A stretch of 64,000 nt of DNA, from NCBI RefSeq assembly GCF_016097555.1, contig NC_054711.1:36081550-36145549 (forward strand), written 5' to 3'. The position numbers and the translations under genes were made by a program. Within the stretch, counting starts at the first letter, position 1; each line of letters begins with the position of its first letter. Of the stretch, positions 2,874 through 56,702 are shown piece by piece. Under the pieces are notes generated by a model. That model saw nothing but the letters and a program-made list of their open reading frames with translations, made no database searches and was not told where the DNA came from. The DNA comes from Gigantopelta aegis (taxonomy: Eukaryota; Mollusca; Gastropoda; Neomphalida; Peltospiridae).

Positions 2874-18257
<15,384 letters not shown>

Positions 18258-20859
18258 GCTAGTCTGTTATATATTGAAACAACTGAAACCAGTATAAAGT
18301 AAAGAAATGACAAACACTGAATGGGGTATGGGTTTGGTAAACAACTTGGGTGTGCAGTTTATTAAAAAAGAAACTTTAATTGGAAGGATTTTTTGTTTTC
18401 GAAATGGCAAAGCAGATAAGTTTTATATATGATGTGATGGTTCTTACAAAAATTGGCTGCCGCCAAATAACTTGCAAAGCTGAAACAGGTTCGGAAAGAA
18501 GAGACGCACTGGAACTGTGGTTGGATTGCCGATAGTTTGTAGTACAACAGCATGTTTTGGGCTGAAGGAAATAGAATAGAATCTTACCGTGACGTAGGCT
18601 GGCCTTTGTGATAGGGAGAGAAGATTGTTAAAATTGTTGCTTGAACTAGAGTGCCTGGTTTGCTTCTTTCAGTGGGTCAGAGTAACCATTCGAGATGGGG
18701 AGGATGTGAAGCGATCTGATTGGTTGGTTACTGTCAAGTTAACTGCAGTTTGATTGGTTGGTTACTGGAAACAAACCGTTCAATTGGGTGGTTTACAGCA
18801 AATCATCCTGTTGGTTGGTTAGTGTGGTCTGCGTGCTTTTTGATTGGTCAAGAAGTTGATGAAAGCCAAACCAAAGTTTACTTGTACAGATTTTAACGAA
18901 GTTTGAACTTTTTGTGTTTTCATTTCTATAAGTGCCGCTTGCGAGGAGAGCAGGCAGACATTAAAAGAGAAAGGAATTTCTGTACTGTATTTCTGCATTT
19001 TATGTCGTCCGTTTCGTCTTTCTTGGATTGTTCGGGAACTCTTTAGTGTCGGGAGTTGATGCCCTTTATTTTTTTGCTGAGTGTGTGTCTGTCCACTAGG
19101 TGGCTGTTATAAACAGATTTAGGAGGAAGTTGGGACTCTACGTGACATAATTATTTTTATGTAGAAATATTTTGTTAAAAAAAAAAAAATGTCAGTGTTG
19201 TAAATTTTATTTCATTAATTGTTTTTCTTCTTCAATACAGTAATGTGGTTTTGATATTTTGTGTATATGTTTTAGTTTATGCTTTGTATATTTTTGTATT
19301 ATTGTGCTAGTTTTTTTTTTAGGTGTTTAGTTTTTTTCATTATGAATCTGTTCTGCTATTGGTGCCAAACTGCTGTTATCTAAATAAGCCCTCGCAATTC
19401 GGAAAGCTACCTCTACAAAAAATTCTTAGTCAATTTTGCTTCAGATGAATACATTTTGCCATGGTAATATTTTTTCCAGGAGGTTTGTAGATATAAATAC
19501 AGGGTAATTATTTATTTGTAAAGCAAACTGTATGACTATTTTGACGAGGTGGGTGGGGGTAGGTGAGACCTGAAAATGTTATCGATCATTAATGAATGGC
19601 AGCTTTTCTTTGAGATATATCCACCATTTTAGGGTCATCGAGTCAGTAAAACAAGAGATGGTGTTAGTGGATTTCACAAAAGACAGCTGATGCTGATTGC
19701 GAGGGCTAAAATAGACATTTATGGACTCGTAACTCAACTAATTTACAAAAGATGGTTTAGTAATATAAGTCACCAACTACTACTTTTTAAGAAATATATC
19801 TGAATGTGGGACAATTTTTTTTATTTGATAAAAGTTTAAAAAATAATAATTTGGCTTTGGTTCTCTGTATCACACTTTTTGGAAGTTACAAGCCATTGAT
19901 TGAAAATTAATTTTCAAGTTACGAGTTTCTTTGTTTATCTTAACATATTTCTTTTCATAGTTATGGGGGATAAAAACCAAAAGCCATAATAATACATTAC
20001 TTCTATCTCATTTGTTTCACTTTATATCTGTCTTTTCCATTACTTCAGGTATTAATATTTATGCCTGAATGACATCATAATGTCGTTTATTTCTTGTCCA
20101 TTCAAACTGTTGTTGTTTATAGAACATACTTCGAATCCAGCACTGTGGACATTCTTGATTTGTTCGATTACACCAGGATATTGTGACGGGCACATGTCCC
20201 CATGATTTCTCAAAGCAGCCTATTAAAGTGGAGTGGAAATAATTAAAATTCCGTCAATTGTTAACAGTCGGTGACATAGCTCAAAAATTAACAGCAAACC
20301 TGCATCTGTCTTTTGTTTTTTGGTTATTGCTAATAGTGTTTTACTAAGAAGTTTGACAAAGTATGGTAGACTAAACACCTCTGAGTCATTTTCACCATTT
20401 TTGGGGCATTTGTTTTTTTTTCAATTTTTAAAGACCTAAAAACTAAATTGAAAAATTGAAAGAAAGAATAATTAATGTGCCTACTTTAATAAATGAATGC
20501 AAGATATATAACAGGCGTATTTTATTAATTAATAATTAATTTTCTGAGTGTTTTATGAAGCCAATTTTAGAATTAATTATTGAAAAAGTCTCTTAATTTC
20601 GGGCAGCATAGTGCTAGACTATTGAAGCATGATGCTGCGTCGTGCTAAAACTAGCAAGGGAAAACACTAGGTAATATTTTCTGCTCCTGCCTACAAAATC
20701 CTCGGAGCCATTTATTCCTGTTAGTGGTGAAATTAATATTTTCTGAAGTATAGAAGCAATGAAAATACTGATTTAGTAACATAAAGATCATGTTTTGTTT
20801 CATACCTTTATTGGCTAATTGACCATTGAAACGTTTATTAGTTACTTTTTTCACGTACC

Positions 20860-20997
20860 AATTTATTTGATGAAAAGTGAGCCATCATTTTGCATTCTGT
20901 ATCACAATTTATTTGATGAAAAGTGAGCCATCATTTTGCATTCTGTATCACAATTTATTTGATGAAAAGTGAGCCATCATTTTGCATTCTGTATCAC
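20860..20997 (+). repeat. 46-bp tandem repeat, three copies
   Basis: Units start at 20860, 20906 and 20952 (AATTTATTTGATGAAAAGTG ..) and are essentially identical. It lies in the LARP4 downstream region. Confidence 0.92.
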
Positions 20998-21118
20998 AAT
21001 TGTTTTGTAATATCATATTTTTTTTACATCTCTTTAGCCGAGGAACTTGGGCATTATTTTCAATATGTTTCTCATCTTTTAATAGATATATACTTGTTAA
21101 AAGCACTCGGCATATATT

Positions 21119-21521: not shown

Positions 21522-23752
21522 CTGTAACCGTAAGCTGTACATTGACAATCTGCAGATACTAATGAAAAATGTTTGGCTGATGTATTTTATAATCGTGAAA
21601 ATTAAAAGCCTACCATTTCATAAGTAATGACTATTACAATATATAGAAACAAGTTCATTGCATTAAGTCATTGTAGACATTTTGTTGCTAAAAGAATATC
21701 ATTCTGTTATGATGTTACGATTTATTTCGGCCAGTTATATCGCTTGTATTACAATGGCAACTATGTGCACAGGGATATGTGAAATAATGGCTAATGGAAT
21801 TGCTATAGACAGCAGAGTGATTTTTATTAAAAATTAATCAGGTTAAGTGAATTGACAATTGGAAATGAATGGAATCACCAACTCCAGACTTTACAAATTA
21901 CCTGTCCCTTGTTAATCAACTCCTAGCTTGTCAATCTTTAATTATATGCTTTTTGCTTACATAATGTGCAAATTTTTCCTTTCAATAGTCCCATATACAA
22001 GACATTTGAATTTCTTATGCATTTCCCATAGGTTTCCGACGTCATTGCTGAATGTAAGAAAGATTCCTGATCTGTTTACGAGACTTCTGATTTGCTAACT
22101 TGAATTCTTGACCATTTACAAGGTTCATTTATTGTGCATTTGTGTAAAGAATATCAAAATATCTATTAAGAAGTTGGTATGATATTATGAGTTGTGAAAT
22201 GTCATCAGTGTTGTGATGGAAAAAAAAAAAAAAAAGAACAAAAAGTATGCCAGTTGCATCTTTAAAAAAAAATGTTTTTTATCCTCATCACTTCTGGTTT
22301 CATGTAGTCTGCAGCCTTTAAAAACTTTTGAAGCATTGTTACTTGGTTGTTAACAAAAAAACTCATCAAGGGTTTACCTATCTCTAGATGAGGCAAAGAA
22401 TAATTTGACGTGATTGGGACATTTAAAATTTTTATTCTAATATAAAGATAAAAAAGATAAAAACTTTATTGCATATAAACATTCCACATACGGAACTGGA
22501 TGCAAAACATATGCATAAACAAGAAAAAAATGATTAATTGACAGGATGTTAATTATTTAAATCATCTGATAGGATCAGATGTGTGTTTCATAATGTTACA
22601 GTTGGATGAGGATGATTTCATATTCAAATTTAATGGACGACTATTAAATTCCATGTCTAGTAAAAAAAACCCAACCCAATTACCGTAATTTTAAACATAT
22701 CGGTGCAGTGAAAAAAATTGCTTTTGAAGACTTGTTAAAAAATCAGTTTTTATTGTACATTGAGGAATCAGGATATTTGCATTCTCTTATAACAAAGGTT
22801 AGAAAAATCATGGCTCAGAAAAGTCAAGGTGTGAAAGGTTACTTAACCTGCAGGGTGCAGGACGACGTCTATTTAGCTCTGTTCATTGAAGGGTTTTTAT
22901 GGCAGGTTTATAGGTACTACTACAGTCATTAATCTCAAATTTTACATCATGAGTTTTAAAACAAGATTTAAAAAAACTATAAATGTTTTTGTACTAAGGA
23001 TGTGTTAGGCAAGGTATTTGATTCTGCAATTTTTATTATTTTTAAATGGAATCAAGAAATATTTTTTTTTTTTTTTTTTATTATGCGAAGCTATTACAGT
23101 GGGATGTTAAGAAACCATGCAAATGTTTTATAATTGGATTCAAGAAATGGAGAATTGCAAACGGATGTTGGATGGTAATCTTTAAAAAAAAGAAAAAAAA
23201 AGGAATAACAGAAATGTGTGTGCCTGCCTGTCTGTCTGTCTGTCTTTGTGTTTTTGTTTGTTTACAGGATTTGGAAAACAGCAAAAACATGCCAAATTGT
23301 TTAAAAGTTGTACTAATAGAATTTGGAACCTAAACCAGTATCTGAAAGCAGGAATTGAGAGAGGAAATGTAAAACATTGGACTGTAATGTAACTGCCCTG
23401 ACCGTTTCCTAACAACTGCAGTTTACAGTATGGACACACGGTCTCGACCATTTGCCATTTCATATTGTGTTGACTGTATATACCGTTACTTGGAAGGGGC
23501 TGAGCTAGTGTTATTGTTTGTATGTTTGTGTATATATACATATATATTATAACCTTCCGCAATTGTTTTGTTACTCGCTGGGTTTGTCCATAATTGATGC
23601 AGCAGAATTTATCCTAAATAACATTGTCATGTTTCTGGTTACGGTTTTCTAATTTTGAACCATTTTTACCTGTTTGTTTTTTTTGTTTTCTTCCAATTTA
23701 AGAAATTATTACTGAACTTGAAAATGTCTTAATTTATGTACAAGATATGTTT

Positions 23753-23803
23753 TGTTTGTTCTGCAGCAAGGTGTCTTTGTTTGTTCTGCAGCAAGGTGTC
23801 TGG
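23753..23803 (+). repeat. Short tandem duplication (TTTGTTTGTTCTGCAGCAAG)
   Basis: A unit of about 25 bp containing CTGCAGCAAGGTGTCT is present twice in tandem. Confidence 0.8.
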
Positions 23804-28770: not shown

Positions 28771-29276
28771 TTAATTAACTGAACACATTTAAAGAGCCAG
28801 GCTTATCTAAAATGTAATTTACCATTGTTTGGTATCTATGTATACCTTTTACATTATATATGAAATACATGTATCAATAAAACAAATTCCAAAACCACTT
28901 TTTTACCTTGGGATTTTTCAAGAATTGATTATGGGGGTGGAGAACTTTTTTTTTTTAATACCCATCACCCATAAACTAAAATAAAATGATATTTAAATCA
29001 AGTATACACAGAGGGAAAATGTGGAGACCTACCAGGAATAAAATAATTAGTGTCGCCCCCACAATGTGATAATTCTGTCACAAGTGGTTTCTTCTTTCTT
29101 TCTTTTTTATAATCTATTGACCATTATGAATCTCTCTAACACACTAATGGACCCGTATACATGCTCCTGTTGAATGTTCATCATTTGAGATCCTTTAATA
29201 CTGGGTTTGAAAATGAGCAAATTTCTTAATGGTCTTCCAGAGGTTGCACAATACTGGATTGCATTTAAATAGGATT

Positions 29277-31160
29277 TGGGATTCTATCAGCACAGACTAC
29301 TTGAAACGTGAGTAACACACATACACCATAATCTAGCCATTGGGATTCTATCAGGATAGTGTATTTGAAACGTGAGTTACACATACACCATAATCTAGCC
29401 ATTGGGATTCTATCAGGATAGTGTATTTGAAATGTGAGTTACACACACATCATTATCTATTGGGATTCTATGAGCACAGACTACTTGATACGTGAGTTAC
29501 ACACACCATAATCTAGCCATTGGGATTCTATCGAGATAGTCTACTTGAAACGTGAGTTACATGTACACCATAATCCAGCCATTGGGATTCTATCGAGATG
29601 GTCTACTTGAAACGTGAGTTACATGTACACCATAATCCAGCCATTGGGATTCTATCGGGATGGTCTACTTGAAACGCTAGTTACACACACATCATTATCT
29701 ATTGGGATTCTATGAGCACAGACTACTTGATACGTGAGTTACACATACACCATAATCTAGCCATTGGGATTCTATCAGGATAGTCGACTTGATACGTGAG
29801 TTACACATGCACCATAATCTAGCCATTGGGATTCTATCGAGATAGTCGACTTGATACGTGAGTTACACATGCACCATAATCTAGCCATTGGGATTCTATC
29901 GAGATAGTCGACTTGAAACGTGAGTTACACATGCACCATAATCTAGCCATTGGGATTCTATCGAGATAGTCGACTTGAAACGTGAGTTACACATGCACCA
30001 TAATCTAGCCATTGGGATTCTATCGAGATGGTCGACTTGAAACGTGAGTTACACATGCACCATAATCTAGCCATTGGGATTCTATCGAGATGGTCGACTT
30101 GAAACGTGAGTTACATGTACACCATAATCCAGCCATTGGGATTCTATCGGGATGGTCTACTTGAAACGCTAGTTACACACACATCATTATCTATTGGGAT
30201 TCTATGAGCACAGACTACTTGATACGTGAGTTACACATACACCATAATCTAGCCATTGGGATTCTATCGAGATAGTGGACTTGAAACGTGAGTTACATGT
30301 ACACCATAATCCAGCCATTGGGATTCTATCGGGATGGTCTACTTGAAATGCTAGTTACACACACATCATTATCTATTGGGATTCTATGAGCACAGACTAC
30401 TTGATACGCGAGTTACACATACACCATAATCTAGCCATTGGGATCTATCGAGATTGGACTTGAAACGTGAGTCTATCGACACCATAGTCGGGATTCTATC
30501 GAGATAGTCGACTTGAAACGTGAGTTACACATGCACCATAATCTAGCCATTGGGATTCTATCGAGATAGTCGACTTGAAACGTGAGTTACACATACACCA
30601 TAATCTAGCCATTGGGATTCTATCGAGATAGTCTACTTGAAACGTGAGTTACACATACACCATAATCTAGCCATTGGGATTCTATCGAGATAGTGGACTT
30701 GAAACGTGAGTTACATGTACACCATAATCCAGCCATTGGGATTCTATCGGGATGGTCTACTTGAAATGCTAGTTACACACACATCATTATCTATTGGGAT
30801 TCTATGAGCACAGACTACTTGATACGCGAGTTACACATACACCATAATCTAGCCATTGGGATTCTATCGAGATAGTCGACTTGATACGTGAGTTACATGT
30901 ACACCATAATCCAGCCATTGGGATTCTATCGGGATGGTCTACTTGAAATGCTAGTTACACACACATCATTATCTATTGGGATTCTATGAGCACAGACTAC
31001 TTGATACGTGAGTTACACATACACCATAATCTAGCCATTGGGATTCTATCGAGATAGTCGACTTGATACGTGAGTTACACATACACCATAATCTAGCCAT
31101 TGGGATTCTATCAGGATAGTCGACATGAAATGTGAGTTACACATACACCATAATCTAGCT
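29277..31160. repeat. 62-bp minisatellite, about 30 copies, between the convergent genes
   Basis: The unit begins GGGATTCTATCGAGATAGTC and includes ACTTGAAACGTGAGTTACAC and ACCATAATCTAGCCATT. At least two unit types alternate; the GAGCACAGACTACTTGATAC type recurs about every 190-430 bp, indicating higher-order duplication. One disrupted unit is at about 30440-30490. Confidence 0.93.
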
Positions 31161-31861
31161 ATTGCTTCATCTTCCATCTTAATGGATTTAAATATGTCAA
31201 TGTGACTGCGAAACAGAACCAAGGATGGGTATTAACCCTTTTAATCTCATAAGCCACTGAACCAGAAAAGGGTTAATGGAGTTTGGTGATAGTTTTCCTA
31301 AAACCGTGGTCCTGTAGGTAACACTCCTGCACTCCCCCCCCCCCCCCTTCCCCTCCCACTACATATTTTGAGGGATTTACCAGAGAATCTCCGTTACACT
31401 ATGAAAAGTTACCTACATCCTCCTCTGAGCAGTGACCACTTAGAATCCAGACACTTCGATTTATGGACATTGTTGTTCACACTGTAAAACTTAAAAAAAT
31501 CAGTGAAACAAGTCCCGTTCAAAATAAAATGTAACATGTTTATGAAAAGATGAAACAATAAGTACTCGTGATCAAAAAGGTTATTGGTCATGATGTACAA
31601 GGGATCATCTTTCTGTGAGCTTTCCCCCTTTGTTCTTATTGCTTAATATTTTTGTGAATGGAATATAAGAGAAAATTAATAAAATAAAAAAAACCTTTTG
31701 TCATAACATTTTGTTCTTTTATATTGTGTTAACATGATTGCAACCAGATGAAAAATAATCCACAACTACATGTGAAATGGATACTGGTACACACTTGAAT
31801 ATAATATCTTGGCTAATCTGTTTAAAACCAGTTCAGTTGCCTAGCAGAACAAAAGACAAGA

Positions 31862-32169: not shown

Positions 32170-32515
32170 CAGGGTTTCTAAAATGTTTATACACTAGCCA
32201 TGGGATCAGTGATTTAAAACATTTACTAGTCCTAATTACAAATTCACTAGCCCTTCTTTACTTAAGTTAATACAATTTTACTAAATAAAATAGTAATAAT
32301 AAAATATGTCACCTAAAGAGGGAAATAGAGCTTAAAAACACTAATAATGGGGGGTTGGGGTGGGGGCAGGATATTCATGTTTACAAAATACTTAACTGCA
32401 ACATTTGACCAAAACAATTCACTAGCTGTCGGGCATGGCAATAGTAGTTTTTTACTAGCCCAACATTGAAAATCACTAGCCATGGGAGTGGGGCTACTAT
32501 AATCTAGAAGCCCTG
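32170..32515 (-). mobile_element. CAGGGCTTCTAGA element, copy b
   Basis: Target duplication CAATA at 32165-32169 and 32516-32520. Interior CACTAGCC, GTCACCTAAAGAGGGA and CTAGCCATGGGAGTGGGGCT match the other copies. Confidence 0.87.
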
Positions 32516-37711: not shown

Positions 37712-37726
37712 GTTAGAAACCATGAA
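37712..37726 (-). CDS. EIF1: eIF1 exon 4, last four codons VHGF and stop
   Basis: Too short for an ORF scan. The text after TTTTTCGTTTCAG is GTT CAT GGT TTC TAA, exactly the conserved eIF1 end VHGF. It joins exon 3 in phase 0 after the codon for lysine. Confidence 0.93.
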
Positions 37727-40700
37727 CCTGAAACGAAAAATATAGTAAAATGTTTTACTAGAACACAAAAAGTAGACCAATTAAAATTTAACAATTTGGC
37801 AAACAAATTTAGGGTGAAAGAAAAAAAAAGTTCTATCCATCCATTAATGGGCAACAAATAAATATATATATTTACAGGGCTCATATATTTTTTACATAGT
37901 TTTGAATACAAATACATTTTTATTAAATAAAATGTATTTCTGGTATGTATCTTAATTAACTCACATCAAATCAAAAAATGTGTTTTATTGTTCATATTTA
38001 GTTGTATATTCCAAATAACCACAAATAATACTTGTTGGTATACTGGCCCATAAAATAACCACAAATAATACTTGCTGGTATACTGGCCCATAAAATAACC
38101 ACAAATAATACTTGCTGGTATACTGGCCCATAAAATAACCACAAATAATACTTGCTGGTATACTGGCCCATAAAATAACCACAAATAATACTTGCTGGTA
38201 TACTGGCCCATAAAATAACCACAAATAATACTTGCTGGTATACTGGCCCATAAAATAACACAGCAGGGCTTCTAGAATTGTTTTTAAATCCACTAGCCAT
38301 GGGGATCAGTAATTTAATTTTTTTTACTAGCCACGATTAAAAATTCACTAGCCCTACTTTACTTTAAGTTAATACAATTTTACTAAATAATAGTAATAAT
38401 CAGATATGTCACCTAAAGAGGGAGATATAGCTTACAAACACTAACATTGATGGGTTGGAGTGTGATTTGTATATTCATATTTACAAAATAGATTTAATTG
38501 CAACATTTGACTTCTGTTTTTTTCACTAGCTGTCTGGCATGGCAATAGTAGTTATTTACTAGCCCTACATTGAATATCACTAGCCATGGGAGTGGGGCTA
38601 CCATAATCTAGAAGCCCTGCAGAGCATACACTGTTTGCCAAAATGTTCATATATGATATATAGCGATACAGGTAACTGAACTGTGATAGGTACCAGGATA
38701 TATTGCAAAGACCATTTCTCAATTATTATAATTTATAAAGGCACTAATTTAATAAAATGATACACCAGTCAATCAAGATTGATTCCAAATAAGTGAAGCT
38801 ATTGTTTCTTTTCTTAAACTGGTAGGTTTTGTTTGGAAATATAACTATTCCTTGTTGTAGATTTTATCTAAATGTACGCAGATTAACCCGGTTCCACCCC
38901 TCCAATTCTGCCACTGTGTCAGAGAGTACACTGACTTTGACCTACTCCTTGTTGACGATTGTATCTAAATGTACGCAAATTAACCCGGTTCCACCCGTCC
39001 AATTCTGCCACTGTGTCAGAAAGTACACTTACTTTGACCTACTTCTTGTTGACAATGGTATCTAGATGTACATGGATTAACACAATTACACACCCCACCC
39101 CTCCAATTCTACCACACTGTCAGACAGTACACTTACTTTGAACTGCTCATTGTTGACGACTGTATCTAAATGTACACAGATTAATCCGGCCCCCCCCCCC
39201 CACCCCCTCCAATTCTGCCACTGTGTTACACTATACTTACTTTGACCTACTCCTTGTTGACGATTGTATCTAGATGTACACAGATTAACACAATACCACC
39301 CCCAACACCCTCCAATTCTGCCACTGTGTTACACTATACTTACTTTGACCTACTCCTTGTTGACGACTGTATCTAGATGTACACAGATTAACCCGGTTCC
39401 ACCACCCCCCACCCCTCCAAGGCCGCCACTGTGTCAGACACTACATTTACTTTGACCTGCTCCTTGTTGACGATTGTATCTAGATGTACACAGATTAACC
39501 CGGTTCCACCACCCCCCTCCCCTCCAAGGCCGCCACTGTGTCTGACACTACACTTACTGTTGATCTGCTCCTCGTTGACGATTGTATCTAAATGTACACA
39601 GATTTACCCAGTTCCACCCCCCCCGTCACCCCTCCAATTCTGCCACTGTGTCTGACACTACACTTACTGTTGATCTGTTCCTTGTTGATGATTGTATCTA
39701 AATGTACACAGATTAACCCAGTTCCACCCCTCCCCAACCCCTCCAATTCTGCCACTGTGTCTGACACTACACTTACTGTTGATCTGCTCCTTGTTGATGA
39801 TTGTATCTGAATGTACACAGATTAACCCAGTTCCACCCCTCCCCACCCCCTCCAATTCTGCCACTGTGTCAGACACTACACTTACTTTGACCTGCTCCTT
39901 GTTGACGATGCCAGTGGTGATGAGGAAGTTGCTGATCAGTTGTCGCTGGTCTCCCTGCAGCTGGATCACCTCACCATACTCTGGGTGCTCCACTACCGTG
40001 CCGTTACACGCAAACTCCTACAATAATACACACAGGTACTGTACAAACTCCTACAGCAATACACACAGGTACAGTACAAACTCCTACAATACACAGGTAC
40101 TGTACAAACTCCTACAGCAATACACACAGGTACAGTACAAACTCCTACAATACACAGGTACTGTACAAACTCCTACAACAATACACAGGTACTGTACAAA
40201 CTCCTACAATACACAGGTACTGTACAAACTACAATACACACAGGTACAGTACAAACTCCTACAACAATACACACAGGTACTCTACAACAATACACACAGG
40301 TACTTTACAAACTCCTACAACAATACACACAGGTACAGTACAAACTCCTACAACAATACACAGGTACTGTACAAACTCCTACAACAATACACACAGGAAA
40401 AGTACAAACTCCTACAACAATAAACACAGGCACTTTACAAACTCCTACAACAATACACACAGGTACTCTACAACAATACACACAGGTACTTTACAAACTC
40501 CTACAACAATACACACAGGTACAGTACAAACTCCTACAACAATACACAGGTACTGTACAAACTCTTACAACAATACACACAGGAAAAGTACAAACTCCTA
40601 CAACAATAAACACAGGCACTTTACAAACTCCTACAACAATAAACACAGGCACTTTACAAACTCCTACAACAATACACACAGGTACTCTACAACAATACAC

Positions 40701-43700
40701 ACAGGTACTTTACAAACTCCTACAACAATACACACAGGTACAGTACAAACTCCTACAACAATACACACAGGTACTTTACAAACTCCTACAACAATACACA
40801 CAGGTACTCTACAACAATACACACAGGCACTTTACAAACTCCTACAACAATACACACAGGTACTCTACAACAATACACACAGGTACTGTACAAACTCCTA
40901 CAACAATACACACAGGTACTCTACAACAATACACACAGGCACTTTACAAACTCCTACAACAATACACACAGGTACTCTACAACAATACACACAGGCACTT
41001 TACAAACTCCTACAACAATACACACAGGTACTCTACAACAATACACACAGGCACTTTACAAACTCCTACAACAATACACACAGGTACTCTACAACAATAC
41101 ACACAGGCACTTTACAAACTCCTACAACAATACACACAGGTACTCTACAACAATACACACAGGTACTGTACAAACTCCTACAACAATACACACAGGTACT
41201 CTACAACAATACACACAGGTACAGTACAAACTCCTACAACAATACACACAGACACACAGGTACAGTACAAACTCCTACAACAATACACACAGGTACAGTA
41301 CAAACTCCTACAACAATACACACAGGTACAGTACAAACTCCTACAACAATACACACAGGTACAGTACAAACTCCTACAATACACAGGTACTGTACAAACT
41401 CCTACAACAATACACACAGGTACTGTACAAACTCCTACAACAATACACACAGGTACAGTACAAACTACAATACACACAGGTACAGTACAAACTCCTACAA
41501 TACACAGGTACTGTACAAACTCCTACAACAATACACACAGGTACTGTACAAACTCCTACAACAATACACACAGGTACTCTACAACAATACACACAGGTAC
41601 AGTACAAACTCCTACAACAATACACACAGACACACAGGTACAGTACAAACTCCTACAACAATACACACAGGTACAGTACAAACTCCTACAACAATACACA
41701 CAGGTACAGTACAAACTCCTACAACAATACACACAGGTACAGTACAAACTCCTACAATACACAGGTACTGTACAAACTCCTACAACAATACACACAGGTA
41801 CTGTACAAACTCCTACAACAATACACACAGGTACAGTACAAACTACAATACACACAGGTACAGTACAAACTCCTACAATACACAGGTACTGTACAAACTC
41901 CTACAACAATACACACAGGTACTGTACAAACTCCTACAACAATACACACAGGTACTCTACAACAATACACACAGGTACTCTACAACAATACACACAGGTA
42001 CTGTACAAACTCCTACAACAATACACACAGGTACTCTACAACAATACACACAGGTACTCTACAACAATACACACAGGTACAGTACAAACTCCTACAACAA
42101 TACACACAGGTACTCTACAACAATACACACAGGTACTCTACAACAATACACACAGGTACAGTACAAACTCCTACAACAATACACACAGGTACTCTACAAC
42201 AATACACACAGGTACTCTACAACAATACACACAGGTACAGTACAAACTCCTACAACAATACACACAGGTACTCTACAACAATACACACAGGTACTCTACA
42301 ACAATACACACAGGTACTGTACAAACTCCTACAACAATACACACAGGTACTCTACAACAATACACACAGGTACTCTACAACAATACACACAGGTACAGTA
42401 CAAACTCCTACAACAATACACACAGGTACTGTACAAACTCCTACAACAATACACACAGGTACTGTACAAACTCCTACAACAATACACACAGGTACTGTAC
42501 AACAATACACACAGGTACTGTACAAACTCCTACAACAATACACACAGGTACTGTACAAACTCCTACAACAATACACACAGGTACTGTACAACAATACACA
42601 CAGGTACTGTACAAACTCCTACAACAATACACACAGGTACTGTACAAACTCCTACAACAATACACACAGGTACTCTACAACAATACACACAGGTACTCTA
42701 CAACAATACACACAGGTACTCTACAACAATACACACAGGTACTCTACAACAATACACACAGGTACTCTACAACAATACACACAGGTACTCTACAAACTCC
42801 TACAACAATACACACAGGTACTGTACAAACTCCTACAACAATACACACAGGTACTGTACAAACTCCTACAACAATACACACAGGTACTGTACAAACTCCT
42901 ACAACAATACACACAGGTACTCTACAACAATACACACAGGTACTCTACAACAATACACACAGGTACTCTACAACAATACACACAGGTACTCTACAACAAT
43001 ACACACAGGTACTCTACAACAATACACACAGGTACTCTACAACAATACACACAGGTACAGTACCAGGGCTTCTAGAATGTTTATAAAATCCACTAGCCTT
43101 GGGATCAGTGATTTTAAAAATGTACTAGCCACGATTAAATATTCACTAGCCCTACTTTAAATAAATGCAATTTTACTAATAGTAATAATCAGATATGTCA
43201 CATAAATAGGAAGATTGACCTTAAAAATCTTTAGATTGGGGTGGGAATAGGGGGCAGGATATTCATATTTTAAAAAAAATATGTAAATGCAGCATTTGAC
43301 AAGGGGTTTTCCACTAGCCGTCGGGCTAGTTATAGTAATTATTTACTAGCCCAACACTGAATATCACTAGCCATGGGAGTGGGGCTACCATAATCTAGAA
43401 GCCCTGAGTACAAACTCCTACAACAATGCACAAAAATATAGAACAAACTCCTACAATACATACAGATATAGTACAAACTTTCAACACGGCTCAAAATAGC
43501 GACCTGTAAAAAGCTGTCTACTTTTTAGATCTAGAAGGAGAAATAGAAATTCACCTGCTAAAACCACCACAAAAATTGCAGGTAATTTTTTTTAGAGATA
43601 TGGTTGTTAGATTATCTCATCTGCTATTTAGCTCGTAATTGTTATATTTTAATTCCATAATGCTCTAAAATCCATCGAAGAGGTCATAATTCCCCCCCCA

Positions 43701-46700
43701 ACCACCAAATGATCAGCTCACCCTATCCTATCTTTTTTCCAGCAGGTTCTCTCTTTTTTTTTCTTTTTACATAAACAGTAGGACATCTCTCTTTTGACCT
43801 GCTATTTTAAAGAAAATAACAGCAGCCCATATTTTGCTTCCTATTTGAAGCCTTGTAACAATATGTAAATACAGTACGAACTCCTACATCACTATATACA
43901 ATGAATCTGACCTACTTCCACCAAACTGAGAAACCTAGTTTAAGCCTAAAAATACGTATGTATTTCAGGTTTCAGTCTTGGGAAACAAAATAGGGTAAGT
44001 AGGTAGGAACCTTTTTTCTTCTTCCTTTTAAAAAAAAAGTATATATATATATATATACAGTCATCTCCACTTATTTGCACATCGGTTTATAGCATAATTC
44101 GGTTAATCGACTATTTTCACCCAACACGGAACCATTTGCCCTTATAACACTACAAAACATCTGGTTAATTGCACAGACTACAGGCTATATATCGGTTATT
44201 TGCACATATAAATAACGATTTTTTTTTTTTTTTGTGCTAAATTAATGTCACAAATGACTGAGAATGTCTATCAAACTTTGGCAAAAAAACCTCAAATAAA
44301 TCACGATTAATCTGTTTTGTTTGAGCTCACTGTGTGGTAAGCCGACTGTAATCACTGTTTAGTCTACGTGTGACATGCAAATGAGATGGTGTGCACGTTA
44401 CTACTGGTGAATCACAATACCCGACTACAAGATTTAAGAATGACATAATTAAGTTGAATAAACCTAAGACATAATGTTTTGTTTGCAATATATTGCTGTT
44501 AATCAGAGGCAATCTCAATAACTGGTAACTCTCCGACTATTATTTTTAGAAGTACCGCCTGTGCGCTTGTACGCATGCGCACTCAACTATTGAGGCCCTA
44601 TTCGATTGACGTGTTCAGGGCAATCATTGTTCTGTATCAATTATTACGTTATGTTGAGAAGCCTTGTTAATAATTAAAAGATTACAGATCAATCGTCCTA
44701 GGCGGTTATGTTTTTAATAAATGTGATCGAGAAAGGGTTGTTGTTCACTTATTCATTAGATGCAGTGTACGCTATATCTGTTAAACGCAAAAGAAACGAT
44801 TTATCACTTGCTTCCCGGAAAATGTAGCGGGAAAAAAAAAGACTGGTGGGGGAGGTCGTCAAAAAAAAAAAACATAACAAAGACCGTTATTTATGGATCG
44901 TCCCTAAGTTTCTGCTATATTGTTAGACACCAATCAGTCGGACCGCACCATGAAGGTCAGTTAGACCGGTCATGCATGCAATGCAGACTGCTGGAACTGA
45001 TAACGACTCACTAGCCGAGCTTAACTTTAATTGCTTAACAATAGCAAAGTCATTATTTGGGGATCACAAATAATACCAAAGCTTGCCATATCTTTTGGGA
45101 TGGAAAGAACACCATACCAGCAAATGCATAGAAGTTCACGTAATTCTCTTCGGTCAATCAACAGCCCGGTAATTCCGGAAACTGACGTCATTTTGTAAAC
45201 ACGTGCACCGATGAAACGTGAACTTTTTGATGGTTCTGTTGTTTCAAGTTTATCTCATTAACTACATGGCTAATACACTTTGTTTACACTAGTGGATGAT
45301 CAGTGTTTTTTTTTTTTTAATGCACAAAGTTTGTGTTTTTAGAAAACGACGCCCAGTGACGGCCGTTGTTGGTTTTTTAAAAAATGATTTCTGGTCTGGA
45401 AGATTAAAACAAAAACGTCATGCTAATTATATATATATATATCGATAGATATATTTTTTTACATTTATATATATCCAACTGCATGTGACATGTGTTAACT
45501 GTAATAGTTCCGGTATGAAGTACCGCATTATGCTAGACTGTCTCCCATGCCACTTTGTAGTTGGATGGCTGTTACAAAGTGAAAGTCGGTACTCTATCGG
45601 TTAATCGACTAACCCGGTTAATTGCACAAAATCGAGCAGCACCGAGGGTATGCAAATAAGCGGGTTTGACTGTATATATATATATATATAATCAAACCGA
45701 GAAACAGTAATCGGCCAGTGTTCTAAATCTAGTTTGCTAATTGCAAAACATCAGGGATCATGATGGATTTTGTTTTTGTTTTTGTTCGTCGGGAAACTGG
45801 AAACACACATTGTTTTAGAACTTATGTGTACCAAGGGTACATATGGAGTATCAGTGTTAGTCTTTGCCAGGAAAGTGGTTTTTTGGCAAGAGGTATCACT
45901 TGACAACAAGTGTGGACCTTTTGAGGATGTCACAGCTAATTTTGATAGTTTTACTATCAGTGAACATAACTTTGAAATAGAAATTTTAGTTTTGTTTCCA
46001 AAATGCTTTGTGATCGGCAAAACAGTGAAAAAAGTCCCCAAAACTATATGTGGGACAAACGGGCGGATAGAGACAGACAGAAACAAAACCTACAGTCCCC
46101 TCCGGTTGGACCAGTAGGGGACTAAAAATACCGGCTAGTTTTAGCCCCATGATAATTCACTTCAATGTAAAACTATATTGTACCTTCTTGGCATGTTTTA
46201 CGATCTTCCTGAAGTCGTATTTCGGGTTGATGCCCTGGACAGTGGTCAACATTTTGCGACCATTCCGTTGCTGAATACGGATATGGACGGGATCTTGAAT
46301 ACTGGATCCACTCGTAACATCGCTGTCCTCAGAATCAGCAAATGGGTCGGTAACTTGATTTCGAGCAGCTGCCAAAATAACACAAACACAATGTTATGAA
46401 CTTTACAAGAAAAACCAGTGTTTCTGCCAGAAAGACATTTTTGGGTATGGCACTATGGAATTGAATGTAACCAGTCAGTAGGGGATATGGGTGGCCTCCT
46501 CCAGAAAGAAAATGGGTCAAGTTTAGGATTAGGGTTAAGAAAATCATATGTACAGCAATGATAAGAGTAATTAATTTTGACAATTTGTTTTACTTAAAAA
46601 CAAAATTTGGCCAAAATATTTGGGTATGGTGCCATACCCATTTTACCCTCTGGCAGACACACTGATAACTGTTTTAACCCAACCATCTATTGTCTGTTGG

Positions 46701-49700
46701 CTGATCCCTAAACCACTTATTTTTACGGTAGAGGGCATTATTTTCTGTTGCCCATTTAGGCAAATTGATAGTGTTGGTTGGGACATTGACATTCACGTGG
46801 CATTTTTAATTCAACCAGTCTCCCTCCCTCAACATTTTGTAACACGTCATTTGACCTACCACTACAAGTTATGAACGGCTGACAGCGTTACGTCATTGAT
46901 CTAGAACGGCCCCAATGTTGATAAAAAATATATACAAACTCTGACAAAATCTGTCATTACAAAGGATTTTATTCAAAACATGGGATGCCATAATAAAGAT
47001 AATAATAAACCCCATAATTTTAGACACCATCATCAATGCGTAGTAAGTTGTCAAGTAGACCAGCGTGTGCGTGCAGAATTCCAAGAGTAAAAATTATCCG
47101 ACCCCAATAGCTCTGATTAGTCAATATGCCATAAAGTACTGCGCATCAAATCATGTTCCAGTCACATGGACTGTGACTTTCTAACAAACGAAACAAAAAT
47201 TAAATAGACAACACTGATTATTTTGATTACTCAGGGCCTCTAGATTATGGTAGCCCCACTCCCATGGCTAGTAATATTCAGTGTTGGGCTAGTAAATAAT
47301 TATTATAACTAGCCCGACGGCTAATGGAAACAAAACCTTGTCAAATGTTGCATTTACATATTTCGTAAATGTGAATATCCTGACCCCTCTTTCCACCCCT
47401 AATCTAAGAATTTGTAAGCTCAATCTCCCTCTTTAGGTGACATATCTGATTATTACTATTAGTAAAATTGGATTTATTTAAAGTAGGGCTAGTGAATTTT
47501 TAATCATGGCTAGTACGTTTAATCACTGATCCCATGGCTAGTGAATTTTTTTTAAATTCTAGAAGCCCTGGATTACTGTTACTATAGTATGTACATATAT
47601 AAATAACATATGCACATTCATTAACCTCTGGCTGAAATACAAATATTTAAATGAAGTTTTATTTGATATTTTTTTAAAGATAAAAAAGAAAAATAATAGA
47701 CATAAAAAACCATACCTAGGCTTATTCAGGGGTTAATCCATGTCAAATCAACAAATATTTGAGGTCGCCCACGCACTTCGGTCTCAGATTCACTTGAAAT
47801 TTGTACCAAACATGCCTCAGTTATCCACATGAAAATTTGTGAGGTTTCTAAACAATTTTTTTGTACTCGTGGTCATACTATACAAGCAACAGTAAAAATA
47901 TTTCAACGATTCCAATTCCAAGGGGTTAAATGAGCTTATGTTTTTAGTGTTACTGAAGAAAATATTTCATCCTGTAAACAATTACTAATCTTAAATCTAT
48001 ATAAGTAGCAAAATAACTGAAATGTGGGTGTTTTATAATGAGAAAATACATTAACCATGTAACTGTTTATATCCTCCGAAATGCTTTGCATATATGCTGA
48101 AGTCATGCATAATTGAAAGATAAATTTCCCAAGCAGGGCTTCTATATGGATAATGAAATTTGGCACACACAAACTACATCACACTAGCTATAAAATGAGC
48201 TCAGTTTCAGGATTTTTGAAGTTAACCCACATTGGTTTTTTTGTCATTGAAAATGTTCCCAATCTGACATTTTTCTTATTTCAGAAGGGCGTTATTCCAT
48301 AACTAAACAGCACATAGATGTAAAACTTTACAATTATGTAGTGACTGGGGTGGACTTCATAGACAAAAAAGATTATGTGTGTGCAGTGAATGTAAGACAT
48401 TGTTTTAGAGTCTGGAAAATGGGTGCTCGTGAAATAAACTTGCATTTTCGACATTTTTATTTGTATCCAGTCATTTAATATGACGACTGAAAAGCACCAG
48501 TCTGCTATAAATCAGTCCTTTATTACCTCCTTAGTGCCCATGCAAAATTTCAGGCTCTTAAGTCCATTATGTCCTAAGATAATAGGTCTTGAAATATAGC
48601 AGGAAAATTATGGCAGCCATTTTTCAGCTAAATTTAACTCTTACCGTAGTTAGGAAAATGTCCATTACTTCAAAACTATTTGAAATACAGAGCTCAAACT
48701 TGAGATTTGTTCATGTGGATAACTGAGGCATGTTTGGTACAAATTTCAATCTGAATCTGAGACCGAAATGCATGGGCCATTTGTTGATTTGACATGGAAT
48801 GACCCTCAGTCTAAATTCCATTTTTTTTAAATAAAGTATAAAATTACATGATTGCCATTTTTGGGACCTCGTGTTAATCTTTGTAGGCTAACAGTTATGA
48901 ACTAAGTTTACTGACTTCGCTCATTTCTGTAACAAGTTCATTTGTGTAGGCTACAGAATCCAGTATTTAATTCAATCCCTTTTCTCTGTCATAACTATAT
49001 GAACAGTATAAATGAGTTATCCTTATCAGACATTGTGATCTATTACCTTATAAAAGTGGACCGTTTCTAATTAATAATAAAGAACTTTTGATTGGATTGG
49101 TACGTCTTCAAAGATGTCTATTAAACATGTGTTTTCCAATTTGTATAGCAAAGATAAGTACCAGTCATATATGAAAATCTTGCGTGGATGCTACCATTCT
49201 CATGTTTATTTTCTGGTATTAAACGGATCTTTCTATCAGCTACATAAGGTAAATAGTGGCAATCAATATGCACAATTATTTTATGTGCGTCGTTTGTTAA
49301 TAGGGACTGTGGACACTTTTTAAATATGACAAGAATGATATTGATTGTTTGTTATACTGAAGAAATACCTTCAAAAGAATAATAAAAAAAGAAAAATAAA
49401 GAAAAATCAATTGGCCCTGACCCCAAAATAAACATTTTGTAATCGGGGTAGGTAACTTAGAGGCACTGATTTTCCATTTTAGATTTTTCACTTTTCCCGT
49501 TTCATAATATTACAAATTCCGTTTTTTTCCGTTTCAGTATTAAACAAATTCTGTTTTTGTTTCACTCACACACACACACACACCACAATTAATTGCTGGT
49601 ATAAAATAAATAAATATGCAATAAGGCAAAACATGTCAGTAGTTTGTATTTATTTTTGGCTTAAATTTAACCACGAATACGCCACGAGACAGACATTTTC

Positions 49701-52700: not shown

Positions 52701-53629
52701 AGAAGTAATTCCAATTGGTGAGCATGATGCCATTTTCAAATAATGTATATAACCGTCCGAATTATTGGACTTATCACTTTCTAATATCACTTTCCAACAA
52801 AATGCCGACATATCCGTGTTCCTTTTGTTCCAATGAAGTTCGACCCAGACAACATGCATTACGCTGCGACGTTTGTTCACGATGGCAACACCGCACCTGT
52901 AATTCTGTCGTAATTTTACTGCTTTGGCATATGAATACTGTATTGATTGAGAAATACTAGGATAAACTGTTCAATTCTGCTACTTGAAAATCTGATTTCG
53001 ACATATAGCCGCTTTCCACAAGTATCAATGAACCCGTATCAATAACTCGGGGCCGAGTTGTCTCGGACAGCTCGGCCCCGAGGCCGAGTTGTCCATGGGT
53101 CCGAGTTGTCTGGTCCCCTTTTGACTTACATGTTCAGGGCCGTTTCATCATGGGGCCGTTTTGACTGCATACCATCATGAGTACATTTGTTATGTTAGCC
53201 GATTCAATGAATGCATAAATATGCAAACAAATTAGTGGAAGGTGTTGGTGGGGATAGTCTGGTGAAAGAAATATATGGGGGGGGGGGGGTCGTGACATGC
53301 TCTCCCGAAAAACATACTGAAAAAAAAATGGGGTTAACGTCCCCCCATCCCAACTGAAACCCAACCCCCTGCACACGCGCCTGTACAAGGATCTTATCTA
53401 CAGAGATTGCCTCTAAGTAGCACCTTAAATTCAAATTATAGCCGTACGCTTGTCGGCAATTTCATAACCGGATATGTAATATATAGAAATATTTTTTACA
53501 TAATTTCCATCTGTTAAAACATTTGTTATGGGCGTCGCCATCTTGGTTCCAAACAATACTGCGACTTAATTTCTAAACATTAAATATCTTACCGAGTCCT
53601 GCTGTCAGATTTTGAATATCGCTTGACAT
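37712..53629 (-). CDS. EIF1: Translation initiation factor eIF1 (SUI1), complete, four exons
   Basis: eIF1 binds the 40S subunit near the P site and enforces stringent start-codon selection during scanning. Exons on the - strand, in order: 53629-53593, 46368-46184, 40017-39886, 37726-37712. All introns are GT..AG and phases agree, giving 122 aa (the human protein has 113). The N-terminal tail is MSSDIQNLTAGLAARNQVTD. The SUI1 fold follows: HIRIQQRNGRKMLTTVQGI with the basic 40S-binding loop, then FACNGTVVEHPEYGEVIQLQ, GDQRQLISNFLITTGIVNKE and the invariant end VHGF. The N-terminal tail is slightly longer than in vertebrates. The ATG has T at -3 and T at +4, a poor context expected for eIF1 autoregulation. 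The gene converges on LARP4. Confidence 0.95.
38012..38262. repeat. 40-bp tandem repeat, about six copies, in eIF1 intron 3
   Basis: Unit AAATAACCACAAATAATACT plus TGCTGGTATACTGGCCCAT. Copies are virtually identical (one G/T difference in the first), so the array is young or homogenised. It is open in three frames on the - strand, but this is a by-product. Confidence 0.92.
38264..38619 (-). mobile_element. CAGGGCTTCTAGA element, copy c, abutting the 40-bp array
   Basis: Inserted at the edge of the 40-bp tandem array in eIF1 intron 3. Ends are intact, but no clear 5-bp duplication is seen. Confidence 0.85.
38640..38845 (+). repeat. Dispersed repeat, copy 2, next to the 5' splice-junction array
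   Basis: Shares GATTCCAAATAAGTGAAGCT and flanking text with 35570-35795. It is bordered on the left by CAGGG element c and on the right by the array of exon 3 donor junctions. Confidence 0.75.
38846..39885 (-). repeat. About 105-bp minisatellite made of eIF1 exon 3 5' splice junction, about nine copies
   Basis: Each unit on the - strand carries a version of the last 24 bases of exon 3 (ATCGTCAACAAGGAGCAGGT..), a GTAAG donor and about 80 bases of intron (TGACACAGTGGCAGAATTGG, C-rich tract, TGTACAT). Donor-like GT pairs lie at 39776, 39667, 39557, 39450, 39343, 39240, 39136 and 39032, spaced 103-110 bp; 38934 is degenerate (GTCAG). Confidence 0.93.
39886..40017 (-). CDS. EIF1: eIF1 exon 3 (second half of SUI1 domain), both borders duplicated into arrays
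   Basis: Forty-four codons in phase 0 from EFACNGTVVEHPEYGEVIQL to NKEQVK. Acceptor GTATTATTGTAG, donor GTAAGT. The acceptor plus the first seven exon bases is the source or product of the array at 40018-43480. The donor plus the last 24 exon bases is repeated in the array at 38846-39885. The exon itself is intact and matches the family residue by residue in its core. Confidence 0.95.
40018..43480 (-). repeat. 33/23-bp minisatellite made of eIF1 exon 3 3' splice junction, about 100 copies
   Basis: On the - strand the 33-bp unit is the end of intron 2 (CCTGTGTGTATTGTTGTAG preceded by TACAGTA) plus GAGTTTG, the first seven bases of exon 3. The 23-bp variant lacks ten bases. The array abuts exon 3 directly, so the exon border is its last unit in transcription order. 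A CAGGG element (43064-43406) interrupts it and a few decayed units follow to about 43480. Long ORFs here (VCTVPVCIVVG repeats) are by-products. Confidence 0.95.
43064..43406 (-). mobile_element. CAGGGCTTCTAGA element, copy d, inside the eIF1 splice-junction array
   Basis: Flanked by AGTAC (43059-43063, 43407-43411), which is array sequence. Array units continue on its far side in decayed form, so it inserted into the array. Confidence 0.9.
44058..45672. mobile_element. pogo/Tigger-like TA element, 1,615 bp, no transposase
   Basis: Inverted ends CAGTCATCTCCACTTATTTGCA and (right, inverted) CAGTCAAACCCGCTTATTTGCA, between TA-rich flanks. CAGTCAAACC ends with TA targets are typical of pogo-type elements. 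GGTTAATCGACT and GGTTAATTGCAC are subterminal repeats at both sides. No frame longer than about 80 codons. Confidence 0.75.
46091..46122. repeat. Short hairpin AGTCCCCTcCGGTT..
   Basis: AGTCCCCTCCGG and its near inverse CCAGTAGGGGACT form a 30-base hairpin at the end of a frame-rich stretch 45751-46117. It may be the terminus of a degenerate mobile element. I do not recognise the overlapping ORFs. Confidence 0.5.
46184..46368 (-). CDS. EIF1: eIF1 exon 2 (N-tail and first half of SUI1 domain)
   Basis: The acceptor is TTATTTTGGCAG and the donor GTACAA. It encodes ARNQVTDPFADSEDSD, an acidic tail, then HIRIQQRNGRKMLTTVQGIN and YDFRKIVKHAKK. The NGRK loop is the basic surface that contacts 18S rRNA in the known family. 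It ends in phase 0. Confidence 0.95.
47232..47570 (+). mobile_element. CAGGGCTTCTAGA element, copy e, in eIF1 intron 1
   Basis: CAGGGCCTCTAGATTATGGT to TCTAGAAGCCCTG, flanked by GATTACT on both sides (7 bp). Confidence 0.87.
47727..48807. mobile_element. Element with about 110-bp terminal inverted repeats
   Basis: Left arm from CAGGGGTTAATCCATGTCAA and right arm, inverted, from GAGGGTCATTCCATGTCAAA align over more than 100 bases (TTTGTACCAAACATGCCTCA, GTTATCCACATGAA). The centre is AT-rich without a credible gene. Confidence 0.78.
49459..50167. mobile_element. Element with AGAGGCACTGATTTT inverted ends, 709 bp
   Basis: Perfect 15-base terminal inverted repeat. CCGTTT / AAACGG motifs recur (TTCCGTTTCAG near both sides). 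No coding frame. Confidence 0.75.
50270..51577. mobile_element. CAGGG-ended element, 1,308 bp, 5-bp target duplication
   Basis: Ends CAGGGCACAATATTTC and (inverted) CAGGGGACAATATTTC, flanked by AATAC (50265-50269, 51578-51582). GGTTACG/CGTAACC motifs cluster near both ends. Confidence 0.85.
51583..52361. other. Non-coding stretch with (GT)n and a 25-base G run
   Basis: A (GT)n run of about 20 bases near 51914-51935 and poly(G) at 51965-51989. No gene recognised. Confidence 0.5.
52362..52483 (+). mobile_element. SINE family A, internal fragment
   Basis: CAGCCAGTGCTCCACAACTG, GGTACATATAAAAGAATCCTT and CAAAAAGAGTAGCACAT match the core. Head and tail are absent. Confidence 0.7.
52802..52960 (+). 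pseudogene. PHD/treble-clef-like zinc-finger fragment
   Basis: MPTYPCSFCSNEVRPRQHAL then RCDVCSRWQHRTCNS: the C-x2-C .. C-x2-C .. H-x2-C pattern with W before H is PHD-like and resembles the finger found in mollusc proteins linked to MULE-type transposases (recollection, not searched). The frame then runs into non-homologous sequence and stops. It lies on the strand opposite to eIF1 within its intron 1, so it is a TE relic or an isolated exon. Confidence 0.4.
53047..53083. repeat. Perfect 12-bp-stem palindrome CTCGGGGCCGAG
   Basis: CTCGGGGCCGAG, a 13-base loop, then CTCGGCCCCGAG. GGCCGAGTTGTC is repeated around it (53050-53112). GC-rich in an AT-rich intron, probably part of a mobile element. 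Confidence 0.75.
53532..53552 (-). promoter_or_regulatory. YY1-like AAGATGGCGAC motif just inside eIF1 intron 1
   Basis: The - strand reads CCAAGATGGCGACGCCC about 45 nt after the exon 1 donor. AAGATGGCG is the YY1 core often found just downstream of transcription starts of housekeeping genes. It could instead be an alternative upstream ATG within a different first exon. Inference only. Confidence 0.35.
53593..53629 (-). CDS. EIF1: eIF1 exon 1 with start codon in weak context
   Basis: Thirty-seven coding bases encode MSSDIQNLTAGL plus one base, followed by GTAAGA. The IQNL tetrapeptide is shared with eIF1 N-termini of other animals, and the split codon G|CT joins exon 2 in frame, which fixes this exon although it is tiny and about 7.2 kb away. 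The start codon is read from CTTTAATGT. Confidence 0.9.
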
Positions 53630-55870: not shown

Positions 55871-56345
55871 CCACATGTAGGTTCCAGGTATTACTTTTCT
55901 GACAGCAGCCACAGAGACGACATTAACTTGTGCAGTTTTAATCACAACGTTAAAGGTTCGCCTATATATAGATCCATTTCTCCCAAACTAAGTCCCAGAT
56001 GGGTGAAATTTGGTTATGTACATGCACCTACAGTATGGAAGTTCATCACAATAGATAAAACAAATTACTTTAAACAAATTTAATTAAAATGCATTTAACT
56101 GTTTCTCACAAACATCAATGAAACTTGCTTTATAGTTGCACCTATGAATGTTTATCACAAACCATTTGAAACAAACAATAAAATAAAATGGTAAAATTGA
56201 TATTGGCTACTGTAAAACCAGCATAAAGGTATGCGAATGATTAAATACAACATGGTTATCCCCATTCTAATTCAATGAATCCATTAAAAAAGTTTGTTCT
56301 TTAACAAAAAACTGGTCACTGCTGTCATGTTCAAGTCATCTTCCT

Positions 56346-56702
56346 CACTGCTTCTAAATTATGGTAGCCCCACTCCCATGGCAAGTGATATTCAGTGTTG
56401 GGCTAGTAAATAACTACTATTACCATGCCTGACGGCTAGTGAAAAAACATTGTGAAATTATGCATTTAAATCTATTTTGTAAATACAAATATCCTGTCCC
56501 CACCCTACCTTCAATCTTAGTGTTTTCAAGCTCTAAAGATCTCCCTCTTTAGATGACATATCAGATTATTCCTACATGTATTATTAAATTATATAAATTA
56601 ATGTAAAGTAGGGCTAGTGAATTTTTAATCATGGCTAGTACATTTTTAAAATCATTGATCCCATGGCTAGTGGATTTTATAAAAAAAATTCTAGAAGTTC
56701 TG
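56346..56702 (+). mobile_element. CAGGGCTTCTAGA element, copy f, ends mutated
   Basis: Left end CACTGCTTCTAAATT, right end CTAGAAGTTCTG, target duplication TTCCT (56341-56345, 56703-56707). Interior as in the other copies. Confidence 0.85.

What the first reader, a model, noticed from the sequence alone, without database searches (positions are those of the whole stretch)
40018..43480. About 100 tandem copies of an eIF1 3' splice junction upstream of the real exon
Seen directly: the repeat unit on the transcribed strand is the last 26 bases of intron 2 plus the first 7 bases of exon 3, and the array touches the real exon. Each unit presents TTGTTGTAG, the same end as the true acceptor except for one base. 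Use of the adjacent 33-bp copy puts an in-frame TAG (the AG of the true site) 10 codons later, so misuse would poison the message. The transcript is also extremely UG-rich (UGUGUGUAUUGUUG), the type of sequence bound by CELF or TDP-43-like proteins. A conserved housekeeping exon is therefore preceded by a very large decoy acceptor field. It may be neutral or may tune eIF1 output.
Basis: partly seen in the sequence, partly recalled or inferred. Interest (0 to 1): 0.9.

Follow-up and report, generated by a model that had tools for sequence, protein, structure and literature searches.

The report
Splice-junction repeats bracketing a snail exon
In a deep-sea snail, one exon of the translation factor gene eIF1 has its two edges copied many times into the neighbouring introns, about a hundred times on one side and nine on the other, so the cell must pick the real splice sites out of a crowd of near-identical ones.

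Summary
The window is from the vent snail Gigantopelta aegis. Before eIF1 exon 3 (40017-39886, minus strand) lie 104 copies of the 3' splice junction: 75 match the true site at 19 of 20 intron bases and 65 carry the first 7 exon bases; 36 are 23-bp units without them.

The other edge of the same exon is also an array: nine ~105-bp copies of the last 24 exon bases plus the 5' splice site, with decoy donors about as strong as the true one. And a third junction array (46 bp, eight acceptors counting the true one) sits at an exon of the neighbouring gene LARP4.

This matches the known amphioxus "mirages", minisatellites spanning exon edges. Best reading: tandem duplication of each exon edge; the copy joined to the exon body works, the rest is intron. 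My searches found no mollusc case. No decoy acceptor can give the native protein end. Whether decoys are used or tune eIF1 is untested. Array length may be mis-assembled, and clustering at exon edges depends on the null model.

The parts
40011..43480 (-). Acceptor-side array: 104 copies of the end of eIF1 intron 2, 65 of them with the first 7 bases of exon 3; commonest units 33 bp and 23 bp
40011..40017 (-). First 7 bases of exon 3 (GAGTTTG) shared with the 33-bp unit; the true acceptor AG is at 40019-40018
39886..40017 (-). eIF1 exon 3, 132 nt, bracketed by the two arrays
   Evidence: conceptual splicing gives the 122-aa database protein P0001
38849..39909 (-). Donor-side array: nine further copies, spaced 97-110 bp, of the last 24 bases of exon 3, the 5' splice site and about 80 bases of intron 3. 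Decoy donors at 39776, 39667, 39557, 39450, 39343, 39240, 39136, 39032 and 38935; seven of nine keep GTAAGT
39886..39909 (-). Last 24 bases of exon 3, shared with the donor-side unit; the true donor GT is at 39885-39884
5043..5457 (+). LARP4 acceptor array, 46-bp unit, eight TTCAG|ATATTTCC sites of which the last (exon at 5429) is the true one; the match runs 29 bases into the exon
5429..5512 (+). LARP4 exon behind that array
   Evidence: Alignment to Haliotis and Patella LARP4
43064..43406 (.). MITE-like element inserted in the far end of the acceptor array, AGTAC on both sides, 12-bp inverted ends; relatives at five other places in the window
46184..46368 (-). eIF1 exon 2
53593..53629 (-). 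eIF1 exon 1, coding part
37713..37727 (-). eIF1 exon 4, coding part (VHGF and stop)

Best explanation
Each array is a minisatellite born by tandem duplication of a short stretch that straddles an exon edge; replication slippage or unequal exchange then multiplied the copies. The copy still joined to the exon body stays the working splice site because selection on the protein keeps it; every other copy is intron. The right sites are chosen mainly because they are the copies next to the exon body (exon definition and exon-internal signals), since the site sequences themselves hardly differ. A low level of decoy use, removed by nonsense-mediated decay, is a likely by-product. Shown: the anatomy on both sides, near-identity of decoys, reading-frame consequences, that the exon part is ancestral, and a second gene with the same structure. 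Inferred: the duplication mechanism, near-normal splicing, the way sites are chosen, the leak.
For: Register match of arrays with both exon edges and with a LARP4 exon. Exon residues in the units are conserved in relatives: EF in 78 of 119 readable eIF1 records, and the LARP4 segment aligns to Haliotis and Patella, so exons came first. Nested block duplications, mixed unit lengths and degenerate copies at the far end are typical of minisatellite turnover. Splicing at the outermost copies gives exactly the 122-aa entry named for G. aegis. Same anatomy as amphioxus mirages, in which length varies and splicing is reported regular (PMC3087553, PMC3902484, passages). Eight minisatellite arrays placed at random with exons protected rarely give three junction overlaps (6,000 placements, P about 0.004; without the array the finding was chosen for, two of seven, P 0.023).
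Against: No transcripts were seen; the database protein is probably a gene prediction and no independent proof of splicing. When arrays may also cover exons, the overlap is not unusual (P 0.165 for eight arrays, 0.24 for 18; counted by edges 0.56 and 0.62). No copy-number variation, relative or population data were available.
Confidence: 0.68

Rival explanations
1. Dosage tuner: decoy acceptors and donors compete with the true sites, misuse gives early stops and decay, and the number of copies sets how much eIF1 is made.
For: Decoys are near-identical to the true sites on both sides. 58 of 104 decoy acceptors lead to a stop at codon 84 and seven of nine decoy donors to a stop 108 nt or more before the last junction. 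Exon 3's acceptor has no T-N-A branch-point core between -8 and -60, unlike the other 13 acceptors examined. Precedent: the human CBS repeat c.1444_1467+7 spans an exon edge, and a title in the reference list of PMC2630376 links it to reduced CBS activity.
Against: No RNA data. Only ten acceptor decoys lie within 300 nt of the true site. Amphioxus mirages are reported not to disturb splicing. Two decoy donors and twelve decoy acceptors would give long altered proteins rather than short ones.
Confidence: 0.17
2. UG-rich binding platform: the array transcript gathers CELF- or TDP-43-like proteins that hide or skip exon 3, as in CFTR exon 9.
For: 94 runs of three or more TG and 86 copies of TGTGTGTATTGTTG in 3,043 nt. 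CFTR exon 9 missplicing requires TDP-43 on UG-rich sequence upstream of the 3' splice site (PMC12171016, abstract).
Against: No binding data for this snail. The donor-side and LARP4 arrays are of other sequence, so UG content is not the common feature.
Confidence: 0.05
3. Intron-gain or exon-extension intermediate: array copies with splice signals are raw material for new exons and introns.
For: Proposed for amphioxus globin mirages (PMC3087553, passages); human tandem repeats at exon edges can form novel introns (PMC2812944, passages). The eIF1 frame stays open from exon 3 through the first two decoy donors.
Against: No sign that any copy has become an exon; this may be a consequence of the neutral process and not an alternative to it.
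Confidence: 0.05
4. Assembly artefact: the arrays or most of their copies are an error.
For: PacBio reads of one individual, Canu and wtdbg2; exact internal repeats up to 456 bp.
Against: Units vary in length and sequence, the far end is degenerate, a MITE-like element with AGTAC on both sides sits inside, and unique sequence continues correctly on both sides. The length may be wrong, but the existence is hard to explain as error.
Confidence: 0.05

Closest known systems
Amphioxus 'mirages' (Adh3, globins BflGb6 and BflGb9, PGBD5, troponin C); PMC3087553 and PMC3902484, passages
   Same: Minisatellite whose unit spans an exon-intron edge; acceptor or donor side; copies may keep AG or GT signals; the real edge is one copy of the array.
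   Different: There in cephalochordates. Copy numbers in the passages I read are 2-7 (Adh3's number not seen); here 104 and 9. In the passages read I saw no exon described with arrays on both edges.
Human CBS 31-bp VNTR, c.1444_1467+7, 16-21 copies; PMC2630376, passages
   Same: By its coordinates the unit spans an exon-intron edge (24 exon and 7 intron bases), as the eIF1 donor-side unit does (24 exon bases).
   Different: One side only, fewer copies than the acceptor array here; a health-related activity effect is stated in a cited title (Lievers 2001, not read), none is known here.
CFTR exon 9 UG-rich tract and TDP-43; PMC12171016, abstract
   Same: UG-rich sequence just upstream of a 3' splice site.
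   Different: No copied splice junctions there (recalled); protein binding shown there, unknown here.
Internal tandem repeats at exon edges in human segmental duplications; PMC2812944, passages
   Same: Tandem repeats at exon-intron edges that can change gene structure.
   Different: Recent primate paralogues, on average about four repeats; linked there to novel introns.

Membership tests
Mirage-type junction-spanning minisatellite | Tandem unit spans an exon-intron boundary | tested here: met
   7 exon bases (acceptor side), 24 (donor side), 29 (LARP4) in register
Mirage-type junction-spanning minisatellite | Copies keep AG or GT splice signals | tested here: met
   104 of 104 decoy acceptors end in TGTAG by the way they were counted; decoy donors match U1 consensus at 6-7 of 9, true 7
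Mirage-type junction-spanning minisatellite | Regular splicing is not disturbed | not testable with these tools
   No RNA reads; only consistency of the database protein with the true sites
Mirage-type junction-spanning minisatellite | Length instability between alleles or individuals | not testable with these tools
   One assembly only; nested duplications suggest it
CBS-like dosage VNTR | Unit spans an exon edge | tested here: met
CBS-like dosage VNTR | Copy number changes gene output | not testable with these tools
   No expression or genotype data
CFTR-exon-9-like UG repressor tract | UG-rich stretch just upstream of the 3' splice site | tested here: met
CFTR-exon-9-like UG repressor tract | UG-binding protein causes exon skipping | not testable with these tools
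   No protein-binding or RNA data

The most novel reading that the evidence does not exclude
In this snail lineage exon edges are places where minisatellites are born, possibly by a transcription- or splicing-linked DNA process, and at eIF1 the resulting two-sided field of 113 decoy splice sites acts as a copy-number-variable brake on a core translation factor.
Probability: 0.12. Interest if true: 0.85.

Novelty: new variant of a known kind. Interest (0 to 1): 0.6.

Why it matters
Splice-site choice is usually explained largely by local motifs. Here the local motifs of one exon's acceptor and donor are repeated 104 and 9 times, yet the gene still reads as a normal, conserved protein. That makes a ready-made natural experiment on how an exon is recognised when the junction sequence itself carries almost no information. 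Junction-spanning arrays in a mollusc as well as in amphioxus, and by coordinates in human CBS, raise the question whether exon edges are common birthplaces of minisatellites. That can be counted genome-wide.

Tried and rejected
Stable structure of the units as cause or function: three RNA folds have z -1.38, -1.40 and +0.55, two DNA folds z +0.52 and +0.57. Not supported.

Micro-exons inside the acceptor array: no GT there reaches 7 of 9 matches to the U1 consensus, but 2 reach 6 and 103 reach 5. Since the real eIF1 exon 2 donor and two LARP4 donors also score only 5, this is not excluded.

Exons created from the repeat: rejected, since the exon residues are conserved in relatives.

A second eIF1 gene in G. 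aegis that would make this copy dispensable: none is named among the 120 rows listed of 3,279 or the 120 listed of 670. But P0001 itself is not among the 120 rows, many rows have no name, and clusters hide members, so the test is weak. Left open.

Branch points: the three commonest units hold no T-N-A, but 6-10% of shuffled units also hold none, and the whole array holds 17. With the stricter motif yTnAy, two LARP4 acceptors (exons e and g) also have none between -8 and -60. A hint only.

Placement tests. I merged the 45 Tandem Repeats Finder rows by hand into 18 arrays, leaving out runs of short units and, by oversight, one two-copy 18-bp repeat at 5595-5628; eight with three or more copies form the main set. 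The acceptor array was taken as 40011-43480, whereas the Finder's own rows end at 43058. Five of the eight (599-773, 20859-21001, 29276-31164, 38013-38259, 61064-61512) touch no junction of the two genes. LARP4 exon edges were set by hand; one donor (exon i) was placed one base short (16382 for 16383), which spoils only its donor score. The window's first 2.8 kb and the stretches 18.3-37.7 kb and beyond 53.6 kb may hold further junctions that I did not find.

Pfam on 49 chosen ORFs (of 660 stop-to-stop ORFs of 40 aa or more): SUI1 in two members, and five other families in one member each, the best PHD at E 0.0001.

Papers: the original amphioxus Adh paper is not held (one search used a DOI recalled wrongly); what is said of it comes from PMC3087553 and PMC3902484. 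Statements that something is not in print rest alone (open-licence PMC papers); one search found no paper.

Full report
What the window is. The eIF1 exons give a protein that matches one database entry at 100% over the 105 aa queried, named eIF1-like of Gigantopelta aegis, a hydrothermal-vent snail. The gene lies on the minus strand: exon 1 (coding part 53629-53593), exon 2 (46368-46184), exon 3 (40017-39886) and exon 4 (VHGF and stop, 37727-37713); joined at these sites they give the 122 aa of the entry letter for letter. On the plus strand 2.8-18.3 kb holds eleven exons of LARP4, placed with Haliotis and Patella LARP4 as guides. G. aegis LARP4 itself was not named among the 120 rows listed.

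The acceptor-side array. Between 43500 and exon 3 there are 105 TGTAG ends, the last being the true acceptor. Of the 104 decoys, 75 match the true site at 19 of the last 20 intron bases and 45 match at 26 of 27 bases including seven exon bases. The common units are 33 bp (47 of 104 intervals) and 23 bp (36 of 104). The true site reads TTATTGTAG, most decoys TTGTTGTAG (90 of 104). The array has nested repeats with exact blocks up to 456 bp, degenerate copies at its far end, and a MITE-like element of about 343 bp (43064-43406) with AGTAC on both sides; relatives of the element lie at five other places in the window.

The donor-side array, not noted in the finding. The last 24 bases of exon 3, the GTAAGTG donor and about 80 bases of intron recur downstream nine times at 97-110 bp spacing. 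Seven of nine keep GTAAGT. Decoys match the U1 consensus CAG|GTAAGT (recalled) at 6 or 7 of 9 bases; the true donor matches at 7. The intron part of the true copy is almost the same as that of its first decoy, so copying or homogenising reaches the working site. Exon 3, 132 nt long, is thus bracketed by copies of its own two edges.

A second gene. The 46-bp array at 5043-5457 ends inside a LARP4 exon (5429-5512). It shows eight TTCAG|ATATTTCC sites, the last the true one, and the match runs 29 bases into the exon.

Is it more than chance? Within each array the register match with the exon is beyond doubt. Whether arrays cluster at exon edges is less sure. Of eight minisatellite arrays with three or more copies, three overlap one of 27 spliced edges of the two genes. 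Placed at random, but never covering more than 40 nt of an exon, the mean is 0.46 and three or more occur with P about 0.004; without the array for which the finding was chosen, two of seven remain (mean 0.28, P 0.023); arrays on both edges of one exon arose in 1 of 6,000 placements. If arrays may cover exons, the mean is 1.6 and P is 0.165. With ten short arrays added, three of 18 gives P 0.015 with exons protected and 0.24 without. Counted by edges instead of arrays, P without protection is 0.56 and 0.62. So the clustering is suggestive, not proven.

Direction of copying. The exon bases in the units encode residues conserved in other species: EF in 78 of 119 readable eIF1 records, and the LARP4 segment aligns to Haliotis and Patella. 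The exons came first and the arrays were copied from them.

What decoys would do. In the frame of exon 3 the bases just before it read TTG TAG. So a decoy acceptor in frame with exon 3 (37 of 104) must stop at or before the true site's own TAG, and the other 67 shift the frame; none can give the native protein end. 58 of 104 stop at codon 84, at least 132 nt before the last junction, which the usual 50-55 nt rule (recalled) marks for decay; twelve give altered products of 122 residues or more. Of nine decoy donors seven stop 108 nt or more before the last junction, and the first two give altered proteins of 161 and 241 residues. Ten acceptor decoys lie within 300 nt of the true site, where, by my inference, exon definition could still pair them with the exon 3 donor.

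What tells the true site from decoys? Locally very little. The three commonest units contain no T-N-A branch-point core, and exon 3 is the only one of the 14 acceptors examined with none between -8 and -60. But 6-10% of shuffled units lack it too, and by the stricter motif yTnAy two LARP4 acceptors also have none there. No strong donor (7 or more U1 matches) lies in the acceptor array, though weak ones like some real donors of these genes do. Folds of the units are not clearly better than shuffles. I infer that exon-internal signals and exon definition choose the site.

Known kind. In amphioxus, tandem repeats spanning exon-intron edges are called mirages. They are described in Adh3, globin genes, PGBD5 and troponin C; acceptor and donor edges can both be affected; length varies; splicing is reported regular (PMC3087553 and PMC3902484, passages). 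The human CBS 31-bp repeat is named c.1444_1467+7, that is, 24 exon and 7 intron bases (PMC2630376, passages). A title in its reference list ties the repeat to reduced CBS activity; that paper I did not read. My searches listed no mollusc case (one search returned nothing), and in what I read I saw no exon with both edges copied and no copy number above 7 in amphioxus; the original Adh paper could not be read. The library holds only open-licence papers.

Verdict. The structure is real and larger than reported. The best-supported reading is a pair of junction-born minisatellites of the mirage kind, in a mollusc, probably near-neutral with a possible leak into decay. Tuning of eIF1 and UG-binding proteins remain open and testable. 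The copy number needs long reads: the assembly comes from PacBio reads of one individual's foot, corrected with Canu and assembled with wtdbg2 (PMC7895826, passages).

Noticed in passing
38849-39909: Donor-side junction array of the same exon, absent from the finding; made part of the main result.
   Followed up: yes
5043-5457: LARP4 acceptor junction array; made part of the main result.
   Followed up: yes
43064-43406; also about 47228-47569, 56344-56697, 38265-38619, 32171-32515 and 16993-17298: MITE-like family of about 345 bp with CAGGGCTTCTAGA ends, six places in the window, one inside the eIF1 array.
   Followed up: partly
29276-31164: 31 copies of a 62-bp unit that holds a donor-like GTGAGT after an open stretch; no known exon was found beside it, perhaps a junction array of an unfound exon.
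   Followed up: partly
23751-23801: Two exact copies of a 25-bp unit that looks like an acceptor (TTTGTTTGTTCTGCAG then CAAGGTGTC); no exon identified there.
   Followed up: partly
38013-38259: Six copies of a 40-bp unit in eIF1 intron 3, about 290 bases from exon 4, not touching it.
   Followed up: partly
52709-52957: Plus-strand ORF with a cysteine pattern like a PHD finger inside eIF1 intron 1; one search found PHD (E 0.0001) in one of 49 ORFs, by eye probably this one.
   Followed up: no
6005-6353 (plus strand) and 63045-63398 (minus strand): Two similar stretches near opposite ends of the window share ORF text, probably an interspersed repeat.
   Followed up: no
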